A DNA stretch of 64,000 bases, taken from the NCBI GenBank assembly GCA_004335835.1, contig RWJK01001554.1:21765-85764 (forward strand). Direction: 5' to 3'. Below the pieces are notes generated by a model. It was not told the origin of the DNA. It made no database searches and saw nothing but the letters and a program-made list of their open reading frames with translations. Positions within the stretch are counted from its first letter, which is position 1. Every line of letters begins with the position of its first letter. Shown in pieces: positions 42,688 to 51,780 of the stretch. A program made the position numbers and the translations under genes. Source of the DNA: Scenedesmus sp. ARA3 (lineage: Eukaryota > Chlorophyta > Chlorophyceae > Sphaeropleales > Scenedesmaceae).

Positions 42688-45600
42688 CTAGGTGCCCGCA
42701 CTGCTCAGCAGCCGCACCGCCTCAGCATTCTCACGGCTGCACTCATCTGCAACAAGCCTCACACTCCGACCGCCCGCAGCAGCTGCTGCACCGGGTGCCG
42801 CCCCCAGCACCGGCCTGAACCCCAGCTGCAGCAGGAGGCCGAGCAGCGCAGGGTGACTCAGCACAGGCTGAATCTTGCTGCTGCTAGTGCCCAACTGCCA
42901 GAACTTGGCGTTGCTAGGGTACTGCTGCATGTTGTGCACAATGCGCTGCAGTGTGTCAAGCGCCTCTGCGTCTACCTCTCTGCCCAGCAGCTGCAGCGTG
43001 CCTGCTGGATCACTAGCACCAGCAGCTGCGCCAGCTCTGCTTATGAACAGGTTTCTGACGGCGGTCCAGTCGCACGCGTCTAAGTACAACATGCACGACG
43101 GCGTGCTGCTGCTGCTGCTGCTGCTGCCTGGCGGTGGCTGTGGCACCTCCTCCTGCTGCTGCTGCTGCTGCTGGCTGTCAGCGCCATGCAGAGCGCGCCG
43201 CGCAGCGCTGCTGCTGTACAAGCTCCAGCACGCCAGCTGCACCGAGTTGGCAGCTGTTGGGTCTTTCGTGCACGTAATGCGCAGCCTCCATTGCCGGCTG
43301 GGCACCCGGGCCGCCTCTGCCACCACAAAGCTGCGCGGCTGCTGCCGCCTGCTGAACACCTGTCCCCGCTGCTGATCCAGCACAACCAAGTCCGCACTAC
43401 AGCTGCTGCTGCTGCTGCTGCCGCTTTGCCCGGCGCTGCTGGCAGCAGCAGCAGGCACACACTCCAGTATCCAGTCAGCAGGGTCCCTCTCAGGGCAGTC
43501 ATCAGCAGCCATGACATCATAGTGACTCAGCACCAAAGCCTCCTGCCCAGGCAGCAGCCGGTACTCCAGCCAGGCAGTACCACCTGCCCCTCCACCTCCA
43601 AAGTCCAGCCACTTGCTGCTGCTGCTGCCGTCGAAGGCCCTGCAGGCCTGCTGCCCCGGCTGGCCGCCCCTGTGCTCGTCAGAGGCCCGGCAGGCACCGC
43701 CAGTGATGCGGCCGGCAGACGTGAACAGCTGGGGGAGTGCGGCGTCGCCTGCGCGCTGGTATGGCGTGGGGAGGCGGGCGCGGCTGGGCTGGGCGGTACT
43801 GGCTTGGCTGCCTGCAGTGGTGGCGCAGAAGGGCCGATTATCATGGCTTTTGATGCAGAGGAGAAAGGGTGGTGATTTTGATTGGCTCATGTGCAAGACG
43901 CCCACGGAGGCTGTTGACGCCTGTGTACCAACAGCCTACATGTTGCACACACAGCACACGCACACCGACGTGCTTGCCACAGCACACATAGGCGCAATAC
44001 TCGTGCTTCTTGAACCAGCACACGCGCACACCAAACGAACGTTGCCCTGCTGTCTAGAGGCCGGGCCAGCTGCATCCACGTGCACACATTGTGCAACAGG
44101 CACACAACAACACGTCGCAGCTGCACCCCGCTCACCCGCCTCTCCGCGTGCGCTGCGCCACGCCTCAGCGCCCGACTGCCGCCCAGGCAGACTGGCTGCT
44201 GCTGCTGCTGTGCTGCCGCCGTCTTCAAGGCTCATCAGCTGCAGCGCCTCTGCAGCATCCCGCATAGCCACCTGGGAAGGACAGCACAGCACAGCACAGC
44301 ACAGCACAGCACAGCACAGCACACGTACACAGCGGAGCCCTTTTCAGTTCGCGATATAAGCTTCAGGTTTTGTGTCGCATGCTTGCCACCGCCAAGGAGT
44401 GCGCTGCACAGTAATTGCAGGTGTGCACACACCCCGTACGCACCCCAACGAGCCAGGATGTCTGGCCCTGGTCACCTAGGCCCCAACTTCTGACACTTGG
44501 TATCGCTGCAGCCACTCACCTCCCGCCGGGTGCTGGTGTCCAGCGCTGCTCGTAGTGGGTTGCTGAGGCGCGCAAGTGTCGCTGCCAGCCACGCCTCAGG
44601 CACCTGCACGCGGCGCGATGGCAGCGACTCCGGCTGCACCACGTAGCGCCTGCATGGCAGTGCTGAAGCGTGAGCGGCGCGTGTCCTGTGGCGCGCCATG
44701 CGCTACAACAGCAAAGCAGACCCGGCGGAACAGCTGCAACCACACATGCACAACCGCTGCTGCATATGCAGTGCACCTTCGCAGCCTTTACGAATGAGAG
44801 GAAGTGCAAGGCACTGCCAGCCACCCACACCGCCCACACAGCATTCCACAGCCCACCCACCTTGTCACATCTGTCACCCCGTGCCTGCTGCTGCCAAACA
44901 CGTGCGCCAGCGCCTTGCCCCAGCCGCCCTCATACAGCAGCGGCGTGTCCCACGCCTCCTCACAGGCATCAACATGCACCCAACCATCACTGCACCACTG
45001 CTGCGGCAAAAGTTCCGGTACCTTTTGCGCTTGGCTGCAAGTGCGTGACAGCATGAGCCACACACGGCAAACTCCGTGCACATGAATAATGCCACAGCCC
45101 ACCCACCGTGTGACGTCTGTCACGCCGTGCCTGCTGCTGCCAAACACATGGGCCAAACTTTTGCCCCAGCCGCCCTCATACAGCAGCGGCGTGTCCCACG
45201 CCTCCTCACAGGCATCAACATGCACCCAGCGCCCCAGGGCAGCCGAGTAGTACTCGCACCACACGTGGTCCGCGTTGTCGGTGATGTGGCGCGCGTCCAG
45301 CCCAGCTGCGCGCAGCACCAGCAGGAAGGTGTGCGCCCACTCGCCACACCTGCGGCAGGATACAGCAGCATGAAGCAATGTAAAACGATGCATGCAGCGG
45401 GCAGACGGTCGCTGGCAGGGCAGAACATGAGCGGTTGCTTCGGCAGGCAAGATGTGACGCAGTGTGACAGCATGGTGCACACAGAGGATGTTCCTTGCCG
45501 AGTACTCGAAGCCTTGTACAGCTAAACACACACTCGCTGCCTGAACAAGGCGCATGCAAGGTATGCGTGTCCGACGGCATGCTCCCGCACAATGCAAAGC

Positions 45601-47444
45601 ATGCAAAACCCCAGTGTGGTTGCATGAGAAATGCGCTTGCGTGCATGCTGCCTCACCACCCACCTGCCGCGGCGCGTGTCCAGCAGCTTGGCTGGGCGTG
45701 CGTAGCGCGGGAAGCGCGTCACCTGCAACCAGCAGCAGGAGCGTGAGCAGCAGCGAGCAAAGCCGCGCAGAGCGGCAACAGTGTCGCAACAGTGCGGCAG
45801 GCCAGCGGCGCAGCACAGCAGGGTCACAGGCAGATGAAAGACACTGTCAGCCTGGCACATGTGCCTCTTCGATATGGAACAGAAGTTTCACCACAGCACT
45901 AAGCAATTTACAGCGCAAGCGTGCTGCTACTACTTACAAGGGTGCACGCCGCCCCGTCGCTGCCTTGCTAGCATTGGCGAAACAAACTGCACCGCCTGCC
46001 ATGTAGCTCGTTGAGCACGGCGAAGAACGAGTCTGAGCACATGCCATGCTCGTCTCTGCACACATCGGTGGCATGGCCTGAACCTGTCGCTGCCAGCCGC
46101 ACCTGCTGGCACACATTACACCTGTAGGCCTCAACACGGCCCGCGCCATCCCGCGCCTCTGCTGCTGTCGGCTGCACCATGCCAATGCCGCTTGTTGGGC
46201 AGCCGCACAGCTCACAAGCCGGCTGGTCGACCTGCAGCAGCAGAGCCACATGTTATGCACGTGGCAGGGCAGCAGTGGGTACGCAGATGAGGTATGGTAG
46301 TACGGCCGCGGAGTGTCAACTGATGCCACCACCGGTCCTGTGGGGCTTACTCTGGTTATCGCTGCCATCATCATCCAAAGCACCACCTGCGCGCACGCAT
46401 GCATGCGTGCCTGTGCTGGACGCGTAGGTGCACGTGTTTGAGGAAAAAAGCACGTCAGTCGTAGCATATGCCGGCTGGCGCTGGTGCTGTTGCCCGTTGC
46501 CCTTTCACTCGCACGCCCCAGCCACCCACCCAGGAGAAGAAGTCCCGCTTGAACCAGCGCAGCAGCCCCTGCACCATAAAATCCTGCAGCCCAAGCACAC
46601 CACTGCCGCCACCACCAGCTGCTTGCTGCTCCCCCAGCAGCAGCAGCGCGTTGAGGTCAGCAGCCTCCTGGGCTTCATGCCACAGCTGCTCCAGTGGCGC
46701 CAGAGCACGGGCCCGTGCCTGCAGCTCAGCATCCTCCACCTGCACATGTGTAAGAGGACGATCCTATGCAGTAAATGCATGGCTACGCACAGTTAAAGCA
46801 ATGCTAGACCAGAACAGACCAGCTGAAGTCTGCTGATGCTGCGAGTGGCTGTCATGCAGGCACATGTGTGTAGCAGAACACAGCATGAAGGCGGCAGCAG
46901 CGGCAGTGCCTGGCGCTGGCAGCACTGCCTGCTGCAACTCTTTTTATGGCATGCTCCTTCAGCAGAGCTCAGCTAGCCAGGCGCGCTCGGATGGCAGAGC
47001 ACTGACATGCCACAGGCAGGTGCTGACGCTGCACTGAGCAGCGCAGCCCAGGCCTGCGCTGGAGGCCTGCACCGCGGGCATGTACTAGGCTAGTGTACTG
47101 ATGGACGCATGGGGCACGTTTCAGAACGTGCCTGCACCACGGGCACGCACCGACAGGGCCTGCGCCAGGCTGTTCTGGATGAGGCTCAGCAGCGCTGCCT
47201 TGACTGCATCTGGGGTGCCTGGCTGCGGCTGCTGCTGCCTGGCCGCTGCCACTTCCTCTTCCTGCAAGCAGCAGCGCATGCATATGCATCATGAACATCC
47301 ATTGCTGGGAATGGTGGGCACTCTTACAACAGATCTCAGCTGCTGCGGCGTAATTTGTCAACGTAATTCAGCAGTGCTGCCGGCCTTTGCACAGCGCTGC
47401 GCAGGCACCTGCAGCGCCCTGGCCAGTGCCTCATCAGCATCCAT
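42688..47444 (-). CDS. PNG1: Cytosolic peptide:N-glycanase
   Basis: PNGase removes N-glycans from misfolded glycoproteins during ER-associated degradation. Nine exons: 47444-47409, 47261-47151, 46739-46530, 46231-46103, 45722-45664, 45349-45107, 44649-44520, 44271-44136, 43811-42688; in frame, 725 residues. The N-terminus MDADEALARALQEEE resembles a ubiquitin-interacting helix. The transglutaminase-type core has zinc cysteines at 125/128 and 157/160 (CELC, CNVC) and a catalytic triad Cys183 (CGEWAHTF), His210 (DHVW), Asp227 (VDACEEAWD). The spacing 27 and 17 equals that of yeast Png1. After DVTRRY comes a C-terminal galactose-binding-like (F5/8C) module (ITGGACRAS, FDGSSSSKWLDF, WLEYRL), then at roughly 600-695 a PUB-like domain (ALDTLQRIVHNMQQYPSNAKF, LLQLGFRPV). 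Animal PNGases carry PUB at the N-terminus, so this order is unusual. Confidence 0.93.
44281..44323. repeat. (AGCAC)n pentanucleotide microsatellite
   Basis: About eight head-to-tail AGCAC units lie right upstream of PNG1 exon 8 (acceptor at 44272), on the gene's strand inside the intron. Confidence 0.95.
44862..44992 (-). repeat. Partial duplicate of PNG1 catalytic exon 6
   Basis: The last 120 or so bases of exon 6, from WVHVDACEEAWD through DVTR and the GTGGG donor, are repeated about 244 bases downstream in the intron with few changes (KALAHV against KSLAHV). The copy includes the catalytic Asp region but not Cys or His and has no evident acceptor, so it is probably a pseudo-exon. Confidence 0.9.
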
Positions 47445-47958
47445 GCTGCCAGGGACGGTTGGTTGCCAGCACTTGTACTGCTGAATGTACAGTTCTGCGC
47501 CTCCCCGGCTGTGAGTTTTTGAAATTATGTTCAGGTTTTCTAGATAGGAGTGAAATGTTGCAAGCAGTGGGCAAGACGCAGTGGTGCCCTGGCATCAACC
47601 AACAGCAGCTGGGTCAGCCAACCAGCCAGAAATAGGCCAGCAGCTGTGCAAGCAATGTCAACCGCAAATTAGTTAAGGTCATAAAGAAAAGCTGCTGCTT
47701 AAAGATATGATGCATCGTGAGCGCAGACGTAGAGTAATTGTCTGTTAGACGAAACCCTTGGTGGTTCATGTTTCGTGCCCTTCAACGTGTTGAAAGCGAA
47801 GCGTGGGAGCTTTGATCAGTCTAAAAGCAAATTACTACAGTTTTGCAGCGCTTTTACCTTAATCCCATTCAGCCACGTGCGTGCGGTGTGCTGCTGCTGT
47901 TGCTGCTACTGCTGTCATCACCAGCCCTGCTGCCACCCCTTCTGCTTGTGTGTCGTGT
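47445..47958. promoter_or_regulatory. Divergent promoter region PNG1 / CDC26-TTM3
   Basis: 514 bases separate the PNG1 start from the CDC26 start. The stretch around 47640-47780 is AT-richer than the surroundings. Both promoters presumably lie here; no motif is assigned. Confidence 0.45.
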
Positions 47959-48474
47959 ATGCTTCCCCGCAAGCCAACCCGCATAGAACTCAAGCCAGAA
48001 GACAAAGAGGAGGTACACATCTGCTGCTCATCCTCAGCAGCTACACTCAGGCTCAGCCAGACAGGCGCCAGCGCTGCTTAGCATTTTGCTCACAGCAATA
48101 AGGGCAGGTAGCATCAGCCCATGATCTGCGTGCGCCAACTTGCAGTACGAATCCCTCAAAAGGCAGCAGCTGGCTTTGCAACAACAGCAGCAACAGCAGG
48201 GCGGCCCAGGCCCTACGCAGGTGAGAGCAGCCACACGCAGTTTGCCGCCGCTCCATCAAAACAGTGAGGTACTGCTGCCCCTTGACAACTCAGCTGCATG
48301 ACCCCTGACCAACATGGCTGCACAGACTCGACGCCGCACTGCACCAGATGCCTAGCATGCACCCGCCCTGAGCGTGCTGCTGCATGGTCTGCGTGTCTTG
48401 TGTGGCTGCCGCAGCAGCAGCAGCCGCTGCCTGGCAGCAAGGAGGCACGCAACGCGCGCCTGGGCGTCAAGTAG
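47959..48474 (+). CDS. CDC26: Anaphase-promoting complex subunit CDC26
   Basis: Three exons (47959-48012, 48146-48220, 48415-48474) close in frame at 62 residues. CDC26 stabilises the TPR subunit CDC16/APC6 in the APC/C ubiquitin ligase. The N-terminus MLPRKPTRIELKPEDKEEYE is the hallmark of the family, which docks into CDC16 with its first residues. The middle is Gln/Gly/Pro-rich, and the C-terminus ARNARLGVK recalls the family's conserved NDRIGYK-like end. If intron 2 is retained, an alternative C-terminus would read on from the exon 2 donor to a stop near 48282. The third exon also contains the start of TTM3 26 bases after this stop, so this gene is the upstream cistron of a shared transcript. 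Confidence 0.85.
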
Positions 48475-48500
48475 CCGCAACAGCGAGCAAGCAGCAAGCC

Positions 48501-51044
48501 ATGGAGGTGAGTGCAGCACCTGCGTGAGGGCCGAGTAGGGAGCAGCGCGTTGCGCGTGTTGGCCCTGGCGCATCTGCCTGCTGTGCAGCCTTACTAGCGC
48601 GCCGCAGCAGTGCTGCCACTGGCTTGCTGTTGGTATAGCGGCGCACCTGTTGCCACAGCCGACATAACAGCTGCCCTCCGTGCTCGTGCGCCCTCACACC
48701 TATTTGCACAGGTTGAGGTGAAGCTGCGGCTACCTGGGCCTGAGGCTCACCAGCAGCTGGCGGCGCTGCTGGCACCAGGCCACGTGGCCACACACCAGCA
48801 GGTGCGCTGCGGCGGCAGCAGCAGGCGGCAGCAGTAACAGTTACAGCACAGCATTGCATGTGCCAGACACCTTTTGCAGGAAGGTGGCTGTTACTGCTGT
48901 GGCTGCCCAAGCCGTTGCGGCCTGGCGCCGGCAGCAGTGCTGCTGGCTGCCTAAGCACATCAGTGTTGCGGCAGCAGCAGCAGCAGCGCCTCAAGCACAG
49001 ATGCTTTGTCAAGCCCGCAAGACAACCATCTGCAGCCTGGTCATTTACCGGCAGCCATGCTACAGCCCAGCCACATGCCATCTGTTGAACCGATGTATGC
49101 TGGCATGGCTGCCGTGCAGCTCTTAGATCATCCTCTGGTGGCTCTCCTGCGTGAGCAAGTATGCCTGCTCAATTCGTTGCTGCTGCATTTGTGCTGTGCA
49201 TTTGTGCTGCTGCACTTGCAGGAAAACTTCTTCTTCGACGGCCCTGGCCGCGAGCTCAACAGCAAGCGCGTGGTGCTGCGGCTTCGCTTCTATGACAGCG
49301 ACAAGAAGGCGGTGCTCACACTCAAGGTGCGGCAGCAGGATCAGTGTGCGTTGGTGTGCGCCAGCAAGCAATTGAAGGTTTGCTGTTGATCAGGATCTAG
49401 GGCCCCCTTGTGTGGACACGCCACACACTGCTGCTGCTGCTACTGCTGCAGCTTGATGCATAGGCAGACATGGGTGCGTTGCACGCATATGATGCGCAAT
49501 GCAGGACGTTCTGTACTCAAGCATCTATCCGCCGCACACACCGACACGCGCGTCATGCCTGCTGGGCCACCTCGCACCCTGCCTCACCTTCCTGCAGGGT
49601 GAGCAGGTGCTGGTGGATGGCATTGGCCGGGCCTCAGACATCCTTTAGCTGCCGCACACACGGACATGCGCTGCTGTGCTGCCTGACACGATGCTGCGCT
49701 GCCTCGCCTTGCCTCCCTGCAGGGCGAGCAGGTGCTTGTAGATGGCATTGGCCGGGCCTCTGAGGTGGAGGAGGTGCTGCCTGATGCTGCTGCCCGAGCC
49801 TGCTGCTGCGCTGCCTGACACCCTGCTGTGCTGCCTCACACACCCTGCAGGGCGAGCAGGTGCTTGTGGATGGCATCGTCGCTTGCTGCACACTGACTGT
49901 ACGCCTGTTGTGCTGCCTTTTTCTGCTGCGCTGCCTCACCGCCTCCTCCTCCCTGCAGGGCGAGCAGGTGCTGGTGGATGGCATTGAGCGCACGTCAGAT
50001 ACCTTCAGCTGCCGCACACACTGACATGCGCTGCTGTGCTGTTTCATCCCCTGCTGCGCTGCCTCTCACCCCCTGCAGGGCGAGCAGGTGCTTGTGGATG
50101 GCATCGGGCGCGCCTCAGAGGTGGAGCAGGTGCTGCCTGATGCTGCTGCTGCGCGGCGCTACTTGGAGCAGCCCAGCGAGCTGCTGGCGCTGCCTAGTGA
50201 CATCATGCGAGGGCTGGCAGAGTAAGTTGCTTTCCTTTGTAGTGTGCTTGTACTAGCAGCTGGCTGGCAGGCTGGCTGGCGGGCTGGCTGGCTGGCTGGC
50301 GGGCTGTGTTGTGTAGCGTGCGTGGGCTACAGCTGTAGCATGGAGCTGCTGGTGCTGTGTGCGATTATCACAAGGCAATGTTTCGTGTGCAGAGCGCATG
50401 CATAGCAGCAGCCCAGCGAGCTGCTGCGCCTGCCCAACAGCGACATCATGCGGGGGCTGGCGGAGTGAACTCACTTGCTGCTCTGCGTACACTGTTCATC
50501 ATGCCGCATCAACTGTGCAGGCGCTACGGCCTCAGTGACCTGGTGTCCCTGGGCGGCTTCAGCAACAGCCGCCAGGAGTGCACCTGGCAGGGAGTCATGC
50601 AATACGCTCAGCTCACGCTCCGCATCTGCATTGTGGGCTTTGTGTGCAGGCGCTACAGCCTCACTGAGCTGGTGTCCCTGGGCGGGTTCAGCAACAGCCG
50701 CCAGGAGTGCGCCTGGCAGGGCTTCACGCTGGAGCTTGACGCCACCAGCTACCCCTGGGGCTGCCTCTACGAGCTGGAGGCGGAGACGGTGAGTGGAAGG
50801 GCTGGCGGCAGCAGCAGCAGCAGCATGGCAAGGCAGGGTAGGGCGGGGTCAGCAGCAGGTTTACGCTGGAGCTGGATGCTACCAGCTACCCCTGGGGCTG
50901 CCTGTACGAGCTGGAGGCAGAGACGGTGAGCAAGAACCGCACAGCGCGCACAGGGGTGTACTGCGGCATACTTTAGATGGGCAAACAGGGGGGCTGGCTG
51001 GGGCTGCCTGTATAAGCTGGAGGCAGAGACGGTGAGTGGAAGAA

Positions 51045-51075
<31 letters not shown>

Positions 51076-51376
51076 GGTATGGCGGGGTCAGCAGCAGGTT
51101 TACGCTGGAGCTTGACGCTACCAGCTGCCCCTGGGGCTGCCTCTACGAGCTGGAGGCGGAGATGGTGAGTGCAGGGATACTGTCCTGCCAACTGCAGGGC
51201 TGAGCAGGGCAGGGCAGGGCTGGCGGCAGCAGGGTCGGCAGCGCTGCGCTGCGCTGAGGAGTGGCATGAGAAGTGCACGCTGCCAAGAGCAGGGCAGGGA
51301 GCGCTGGACACTCATCGGCTGTCAGAAAATGACCTGCAGCAGTTGAGGTTGCAGCCTTGAATGGATCTGCCGCTGC

Positions 51377-51430
<54 letters not shown>

Positions 51431-51549
51431 AGGACAAGCCTGAGGAGCTGCGGGCCCAGCTGGAGGCGCTGCTGCAGGGCCAGGGCATCCCCTACAGCTA
51501 CAGCAAGACCAGCAAGTTTGCAAACTTCATCAACAAGACGCTGCTGTGA
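48501..51549 (+). CDS. TTM3: Triphosphate tunnel metalloenzyme, TTM3-type (CYTH)
   Basis: Six exons (48501-48506, 48712-48801, 49222-49326, 50079-50221, 50650-50788, 51433-51549) close in frame at 199 residues, close to Arabidopsis TTM3. CYTH/TTM enzymes hydrolyse tripolyphosphate or related triphosphates inside an eight-stranded beta tunnel with a divalent metal. The protein starts MEVEVKLRL, giving the defining ExExK at residues 2-6. Further tunnel residues are in VVLRLRFYD, AVLTLK, LVSLGGFSNSRQECAW, FTLELDATSYPWGCLYELEAET and the C-terminal SKTSKFANF, all matching the plant enzyme. The first exon piece is only ATGGAG followed by GTGAGT and lies in the exon that ends CDC26. Nearly every intron carries copies of exon edges. 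Confidence 0.92.
49590..50000 (+). repeat. Four tandem echoes of the TTM3 exon 4 acceptor edge
   Basis: CTGCAG followed by GGCGAGCAGGTGCTTGTGGA-type exon sequence occurs at about 49599, 49724, 49850 and 49958 before the real exon at 50079, a period of 107-127 bases. The 49724 copy runs about 75 bases into exon sequence. Others meet TAG or lose frame soon. Linker sequence rich in GCTGCCGCACACA is also repeated. Confidence 0.92.
50405..50606 (+). repeat. Copies of TTM3 exon 4 end and exon 5 start in intron 4
   Basis: Bases 50405-50467 repeat the last 60 bases of exon 4, ending GGCGGAGTGA. Bases 50513-50600 repeat the first 75 bases of exon 5 with its TGTGCAG acceptor (RYGLSDLVSLGGFSNSRQEC against RYSLTELVSLGGF...). 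The second exon 5 copy at 50650 continues and is taken as the real exon; the first could be used only with a different downstream junction. Confidence 0.85.
50855..51170 (+). repeat. Three echoes of the TTM3 exon 5 donor edge
   Basis: The last 40-70 bases of exon 5 with a GTGAGT or GTGAGC donor recur at about 50859-50932, 50998-51036 and 51098-51166, a period of about 110-130 bases. The middle copy has TATAAGCTGG for TACGAGCTGG. A GCAGCAGCAG linker repeats with them. Confidence 0.9.
51376..51432 (+). repeat. (CTG)n tract forming the TTM3 exon 6 acceptor
   Basis: A run of about 17 CTG triplets ends in CAG, and the AG is the acceptor of the last TTM3 exon. This repeats the arrangement seen at TIM9. 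Confidence 0.9.
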
Positions 51550-51775: not shown

Positions 51776-51780
51776 TGTAA
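51776..51780 (+). terminator. TGTAA polyadenylation signal for CDC26-TTM3
   Basis: TGTAA about 230 bases after the TTM3 stop, in an AT-rich setting, fits the chlorophyte polyadenylation signal and a normal 3' untranslated length. Confidence 0.5.

What the first reader, a model, noticed from the sequence alone, without database searches (positions are those of the whole stretch)
47959..51549. CDC26 and TTM3 share one exon: an algal bicistronic locus
The CDC26 stop (48472-48474) and the TTM3 ATG (48501) are 26 bases apart in a continuous exon, and TTM3 is spliced six bases later (ATGGAG|GTGAGT). Any mature mRNA with the CDC26 C-terminus must also carry the TTM3 start. Arabidopsis is known to express CDC26 and TTM3 from one bicistronic transcript. 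Finding both in the same order, and so tightly packed, in an alga suggests the arrangement is ancient in the green lineage and gives a short-spacer case for studying reinitiation or leaky scanning.
Basis: partly seen in the sequence, partly recalled or inferred. Interest (0 to 1): 0.9.

Follow-up and report, generated by a model that had tools for sequence, protein, structure and literature searches.

The report
Known CDC26–TTM3 two-gene unit, algal copy
In this green alga a small cell-division gene (CDC26) and a phosphate-metabolism gene (TTM3) sit 26 bases apart in one exon, a conserved two-genes-on-one-message arrangement that has already been described in land plants and in other green algae.

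Summary
Both identities hold (Pfam CDC26 1.3e-9, CYTH 3.4e-20); exon-wise search finds CDC26 only here in the genome. The closest TTM3 proteins point to a Scenedesmus-like alga. That a CDC26 message carries the TTM3 start follows from the geometry, but no RNA was available. Indirect support: a relative's ORF, apparently from a transcriptome, spans CDC26 exons 2-3 and TTM3, and 13 of 40 N-extended TTM3 protein models contain the CDC26 N-terminus, fused or in another frame. The novelty claim fails: a 2025 PNAS paper lists CDC26/TTM3 as a deeply conserved, ribosome-profiled bicistron of Chlamydomonas and favours leaky scanning for the class. The window fits: weak CDC26 start, strong TTM3 start. 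The absence of AUGs between them is expected by chance (P=0.77). The 26-nt spacer is ordinary; inferred spacers elsewhere run from a 1-nt overlap to 47 nt. Side result: the shared exon supplies the first Glu of TTM3's ExExK motif, and the next intron looks conserved.

The parts
47959..48012 (+). CDC26 exon 1 (ATG at 47959; weak start context, T at -3, C at +4)
48146..48220 (+). CDC26 exon 2 (phase 0 at both ends)
48418..48506 (+). Shared exon: CDC26 C-terminus and stop (48472-48474), 26-nt spacer, TTM3 ATGGAG. Acceptor ambiguous 48415-48424 in a CAG run
48475..48500 (+). Inter-ORF spacer, 26 nt, no ATG
48501..48506 (+). TTM3 start codon and Glu2 (first Glu of ExExK); strong start context, G at -3, G at +4
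48712..48801 (+). TTM3 exon 2
49222..49326 (+). TTM3 exon 3
50079..50221 (+). TTM3 exon 4 (the complete copy among partial tandem copies)
50650..50788 (+). TTM3 exon 5 (the complete copy)
51433..51549 (+). TTM3 last exon, stop TGA 51547-51549
51776..51780 (+). TGTAA, candidate poly(A) signal; the only plus-strand TGTAA between 47000 and 53000
   Evidence: role of the motif in chlorophytes from PMC1868727 passages; a TGTAA within 400 nt after TTM3 occurs in 18% of simulations

Best explanation
This is the Scenedesmus-like alga's copy of the conserved CDC26_TTM3 bicistron. One promoter upstream of 47959 drives a single spliced RNA that carries CDC26 first and TTM3 second, ending near 51.8 kb (inferred). 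Most scanning ribosomes start at the weak CDC26 AUG and make the APC/C subunit. A fraction pass it and start at the next AUG, the strong TTM3 start, and make the tunnel phosphatase (leaky scanning; inferred). The gene anatomy is shown here; co-transcription and the translation mechanism are inferred from relatives and from published work on the same locus and its class.
For: Anatomy and gene identities. P0003, whose source name looks like a TransDecoder ORF from a transcriptome record (name format interpreted from recall), aligns at 71% over 94 columns with the window read from the end of intron 1 through CDC26 exons 2 and 3 in the TTM3 frame and on into TTM3, so one RNA of a relative would span both. 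Of 185 proteins held (every row listed, two of those lists capped at 120 rows) 40 have at least 25 aa before the TTM3 core. Five of 40 are fused to CDC26 in its own frame and 8 of 40 carry CDC26 read in frame +2. Three of the five fused ones stood in that profile; with a profile free of them the same 13 of 40 lead (z 13.8-16.6 and 6.8-12.4, next best 4.5). A C-terminal profile on 61 extended proteins gives 4 with z of 5.3 or more, three of them new: P0012, P0016, P0033. Start contexts: CDC26 T at -3, C at +4; TTM3 G and G. Of 14 histone, tubulin and ubiquitin start sites in the same genome 13 have a purine at -3 (one internal ubiquitin repeat among the 15 printed was dropped; several are family copies). 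No ATG between the two starts in the mature mRNA. Published: ribosome-profiling support in Chlamydomonas and leaky scanning shown for other genes of this class.
Against: No RNA data for this genome. The lack of internal ATG is expected by chance (P=0.77), and the +4 bases are set by Leu2 of CDC26 and Glu2 of TTM3. The TGTAA pattern is not significant. P0003 carries intron-1 sequence upstream, so it is not a clean, fully spliced CDC26 message. Of the 40 extended proteins 27 show no clear CDC26 N-terminus, and the match of P0047 (frame 1, z 4.6) is spurious. In Arabidopsis the second ORFs of seven of eight tested readthrough bicistrons were rarely translated (PMC9768141 passage); whether CDC26-TTM3 was among those eight was not seen.
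Confidence: 0.78

Rival explanations
1. Same bicistronic RNA, but TTM3 is translated mainly by ribosomes that finish CDC26 and reinitiate 26 nt downstream.
For: Short first ORF (61 codons) and short spacer, which favour reinitiation in general.
Against: For two tested algal bicistrons and a synthetic one a stronger ORF1 start lowered ORF2 output, or a weaker one raised it, the reverse of the reinitiation prediction (PMC11291117 passages); CDC26_TTM3 itself was not among the loci named there as tested. The start contexts here are arranged as for leaky scanning.
Confidence: 0.15
2. Two transcription units packed together: a TTM3-only promoter inside CDC26 intron 2 or exon 3, and a CDC26-only message polyadenylated in TTM3 intron 1.
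For: Not excluded: no RNA ends are mapped, and intron 2 (48221-48417) could hold a start site.
Against: No TGTAA lies between 48475 and 51549, though this is weak (55% by chance). The adjacency persists across chlorophyte lineages and is reported as a bicistron in Chlamydomonas.
Confidence: 0.07
3. The shared exon is skipped in some messages, giving an in-frame CDC26(1-43)-TTM3 fusion protein, as several genome annotations predict.
For: Frames match here (phase 0 on both sides), and fused models exist in Parachlorella, Micractinium, Sanguina and the unnamed P0009.
Against: The fused models that join directly to VEVK (P0009, P0070, P0128) lose the first Glu of the ExExK hallmark motif (motif), so they look like single-ORF gene-predictor artefacts. 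P0129 joins differently and keeps an EVEVK.
Confidence: 0.04

Closest known systems
Arabidopsis CDC26-TTM3 bicistronic transcript (Lorenzo-Orts et al. 2019; paper not held, seen through passages of PMC7943633, PMC6973038, PMC9768141)
   Same: Same two genes, same order, CDC26 upstream of TTM3.
   Different: RNA evidence, NMD control and polysome effects are reported there; none is tested here. The Arabidopsis spacer and intron positions were not seen.
Chlamydomonas reinhardtii CDC26/TTM3 in the high-confidence bicistron set (PMC11892635, PNAS 2025, section 5 and passages read)
   Same: Same locus in a chlorophycean alga; the set requires ribosome-profiling evidence.
   Different: Different species. 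Its spacer would be in supplementary data that could not be opened; the window has 26 nt.
Auxenochlorella, Edaphochlamys, Volvox, Monoraphidium and Raphidocelis TTM3 gene models that contain CDC26 in another frame (P0056, P0058, P0041, P0012, P0016)
   Same: CDC26 immediately upstream of TTM3 on the same strand.
   Different: Inferred spacers -1 (one-base overlap), 5, 5 (by hand; the script printed 8), 38 and 47 nt against 26 here.

Membership tests
APC/C subunit CDC26 (PF10471) | Pfam ANAPC_CDC26 match over the curated cut-off, N-terminal MLxRKPTRIELKxEDKEEY | tested here: met
   39.3 bits against cut-off 24.5; solved CDC26 chains of the APC/C, E 2.9e-4
TTM3 / CYTH inorganic polyphosphatase | CYTH domain with intact N-terminal ExExK motif | tested here: met
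   73.1 bits against cut-off 23.2; EVEVK at residues 2-6; motif definition from PMC8233210 passages
TTM3 / CYTH inorganic polyphosphatase | Hydrolysis of short-chain polyphosphate | not testable with these tools
   needs enzyme assay
CDC26_TTM3 bicistron | Same strand, CDC26 first, contiguous, both ORFs intact | tested here: met
CDC26_TTM3 bicistron | One mature RNA carries both ORFs | tested here: inconclusive
   forced for the TTM3 start codon by the shared exon; a relative's ORF (P0003) spans CDC26 exons 2-3 and TTM3; no RNA for this genome
CDC26_TTM3 bicistron | Both proteins made from that RNA | not testable with these tools
   needs ribosome profiling or proteomics
Leaky-scanning green-algal bicistrons | Short ORF1, short spacer, weak ORF1 and strong ORF2 start context | tested here: met
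   ORF1 186 nt with stop, spacer 26 nt, contexts; published medians
Leaky-scanning green-algal bicistrons | Depletion of AUG between the two starts | tested here: inconclusive
   none present, but P=0.77 by chance
Leaky-scanning green-algal bicistrons | Short 5' UTR | not testable with these tools
   cap site unknown; the nearest upstream ATG is at 47768, 191 nt above the CDC26 start

The most novel reading that the evidence does not exclude
The CDC26 exons are dual-coding: besides CDC26, the frame that runs into TTM3 (+2) is open through all of CDC26 and is translated in some messages as an N-terminal extension of TTM3, for example from the ATG at 48121 in retained intron 1, giving a longer TTM3 isoform that could be targeted differently. 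The window has this frame open, the relative's ORF P0003 starts at the equivalent ATG and matches it at 71%, and eight other algal TTM3 models read the same frame through CDC26. I raised the probability slightly (0.04 to 0.06) because of the P0003 alignment.
Probability: 0.06. Interest if true: 0.6.

Novelty: new member of a known kind. Interest (0 to 1): 0.2.

Why it matters
It adds a base-exact, Scenedesmus-like example to a published set of eukaryotic bicistrons. The exon holding the CDC26 stop and the TTM3 start also supplies the first Glu of the ExExK motif of TTM3, so TTM3 cannot be made complete without that exon; this may help explain why the two genes have stayed locked together (inference). 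It also suggests that fused or N-extended algal TTM3 entries in databases are often annotation errors.

Tried and rejected
A TTM3 alignment scan of viral contigs found 25 pattern stretches and no relative; genome contigs gave 6 bacterial CYTH loci only; a degenerate CDC26 pattern found nothing in viral contigs. So conservation rests on protein models.

AUG depletion as evidence for leaky scanning: rejected as uninformative (P=0.77). TGTAA distribution: too weak. RNA structure across stop, spacer and start: no more stable than shuffles (z 0.35), so no sign of a structured element.

Dual coding of CDC26 and an N-extended TTM3: considered. The +2 frame over CDC26 stays open in 16.5% of synonymous recodings, and gene predictors select for open frames. 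The window has no in-frame ATG upstream of the CDC26 start in that open frame (ORF 47733-48101); the ATG that I found in that frame is in intron 1 at 48121. I rate it unlikely and keep it as the novel case. Exon-skip fusion: rejected as most likely an annotation artefact (loss of the first ExExK Glu).

Shared longest-contig lengths of CDC26 and TTM3 hits (P0125 with P0039, 2663; P0124 with P0049, 1506; 2 of 7 CDC26 hits) suggest same-contig pairs, but the contigs could not be opened, so this is not counted as evidence.

Full report
What is there. The window lies in contig C1167 of an 87-Mb, 1567-contig genome. The nearest TTM3 proteins are 93% (unnamed source) and 87% identical (Scenedesmus sp. 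NREL 46B-D3), so the host is probably a Scenedesmus-like chlorophycean alga. CDC26 is encoded by three exons from 47959 to 48474 and TTM3 by six from 48501 to 51549. The acceptor of the third CDC26 exon falls in a CAG run and can be placed at four in-frame positions; this changes only the number of glutamines. Both identities are secure. CDC26 shows no second copy in the genome by exon-wise search. The CYTH family search gives one match, exon 3 of this gene, and DNA of exon 4 matches only this locus (5 matches, all here).

Does the geometry force a bicistronic message? Nearly. The CDC26 stop and the TTM3 start lie in one exon, so a message with the CDC26 C-terminus carries the TTM3 ATG unless it is cut within the 26-nt spacer. 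It need not carry the TTM3 ORF, because it could end in the 205-nt first TTM3 intron. The next in-frame methionine of TTM3 is residue 110, and residue 2 is the first Glu of the ExExK hallmark (definition in passages of PMC8233210). So an intact enzyme needs the shared exon.

Is it conserved? I tested this with proteins, since no algal nucleotide relatives were found. Gene predictors that expect one ORF per gene leave a trace: they either fuse CDC26 to TTM3, or extend TTM3 upstream through CDC26 in the wrong frame. Of 185 proteins held (all rows listed; one search listed 120 of 399 and 120 of 122) 40 have at least 25 residues before the TTM3 core. Five of 40 begin with CDC26 in frame: Parachlorella kessleri, Micractinium tetrahymenae, Sanguina aurantia and two without names. 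Eight of 40 carry CDC26 shifted by two bases: Astrephomene, Volvox reticuliferus, V. africanus (two entries), Edaphochlamys, Chlamydomonas sp. UWO 241, C. eustigma and Auxenochlorella. The profile included three of the fused proteins; with a profile free of them the same 13 lead, z 13.8-16.6 for the five and 6.8-12.4 for the eight, against shuffled extensions; the best of the other 27 has z 4.5. A profile of the CDC26 C-terminus on 61 proteins adds Monoraphidium, Raphidocelis and one unnamed protein at z 5.3 or more; weaker matches include P0003 (z 3.6) and Dunaliella (z 2.9), and one match in frame 1 (P0047, z 4.6) is spurious. Bryopsis (Ulvophyceae) gave no clear match. Together this supports CDC26-TTM3 adjacency in Chlorophyceae and Trebouxiophyceae (class assignments of the genera recalled). 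Prasinophytes were not tested.

The intron after ATGGAG also looks old. In 13 of 185 proteins the residue before the core VE(V/I)K is neither Glu nor Val; in 11 of these 13 it is Gln, as expected from the CAG of an acceptor read through or joined.

Spacers inferred by the script from the wrong-frame extensions are -1 (Auxenochlorella, stop and start overlapping by a base), 5 (Edaphochlamys, Dunaliella), 29 (P0003), 38, 41 and 47 nt. By hand I read 5 in Volvox (script 8) and 8 in UWO 241 (script 38, on a repeat). The window's 26 nt is ordinary.

How it works. Published work on algal bicistrons found short first ORFs, short spacers, weaker first than second start contexts, and reporter behaviour that fits leaky scanning and not reinitiation (passages and section 7 of PMC11291117). 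Here CDC26 has T at -3 and C at +4, TTM3 has G and G, while 13 of 14 reference start sites of the same genome have a purine at -3. No AUG lies between the two starts, but this would happen by chance in 77% of recodings. Five exon junctions lie downstream of the CDC26 stop (32, 122, 227, 370 and 509 nt) and could make the message a candidate for nonsense-mediated decay unless TTM3 is also translated. That fits the interplay reported for Arabidopsis, but it is inference here.

Is it new? No. PMC11892635 (PNAS 2025, section 5 and two passages read) lists CDC26/TTM3 as a deeply conserved bicistron of its Chlamydomonas set and says it is conserved in plants and green algae. I saw no statement about the ExExK-splitting intron in what I read, but I looked for it only through the listing and passages, so I claim nothing about its novelty.

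Dual coding. Reading from the ATG at 48121 in intron 1, the +2 frame runs through CDC26 exons 2-3 into TTM3; P0003 matches this product with 67 of 94 columns identical and one gap. Part of that likeness follows from CDC26 and TTM3 conservation themselves, and the two species are close, so it is weak evidence for translation of this frame.

Side finding. The TTM3 introns are full of partial tandem copies of exons 4 and 5. A 3-kb stretch placed by hand over them has 1030 nt in local duplicates, more than any of the 21 regular window tiles (7 of 21 have some, at most 599 nt) or of 14 other loci (6 of 14, at most 569 nt). The divergent neighbour on the minus strand shows the same kind of copy.

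Noticed in passing
49590-50230, 50407-50466, 50514-50600, 50833-51170: TTM3 introns hold partial tandem copies of exon 4 (five acceptor-plus-start copies including the complete exon, and one extra tail) and exon 5 (one extra start, three extra tails), up to about 95% identical; only one copy of each exon is complete. The extra acceptors are potential decoy splice sites.
   Followed up: partly
44843-44982 and 45089-45228 (- strand gene): The divergently transcribed neighbour, a transglutaminase-core protein that looks like a peptide N-glycanase (that name is recalled; Pfam gives Transglut_core 9.8e-8), also has a 140-nt tandem copy, 91% identical.
   Followed up: partly
47445-47958: About 0.5 kb between CDC26 and the divergent minus-strand gene (start near 47444 guessed by eye), a possible shared promoter region.
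   Followed up: no
48121-48506: An ATG in CDC26 intron 1 opens a frame that runs through CDC26 exons 2-3 in frame +2 and into TTM3; the relative's ORF P0003 starts at the equivalent place and aligns at 71%.
   Followed up: partly
P0009, P0070, P0128, P0129 and P0018, P0036, P0041, P0056, P0058 (database proteins): Public algal TTM3 entries appear mis-annotated: fused to CDC26 or extended through CDC26 in the wrong frame.
   Followed up: yes
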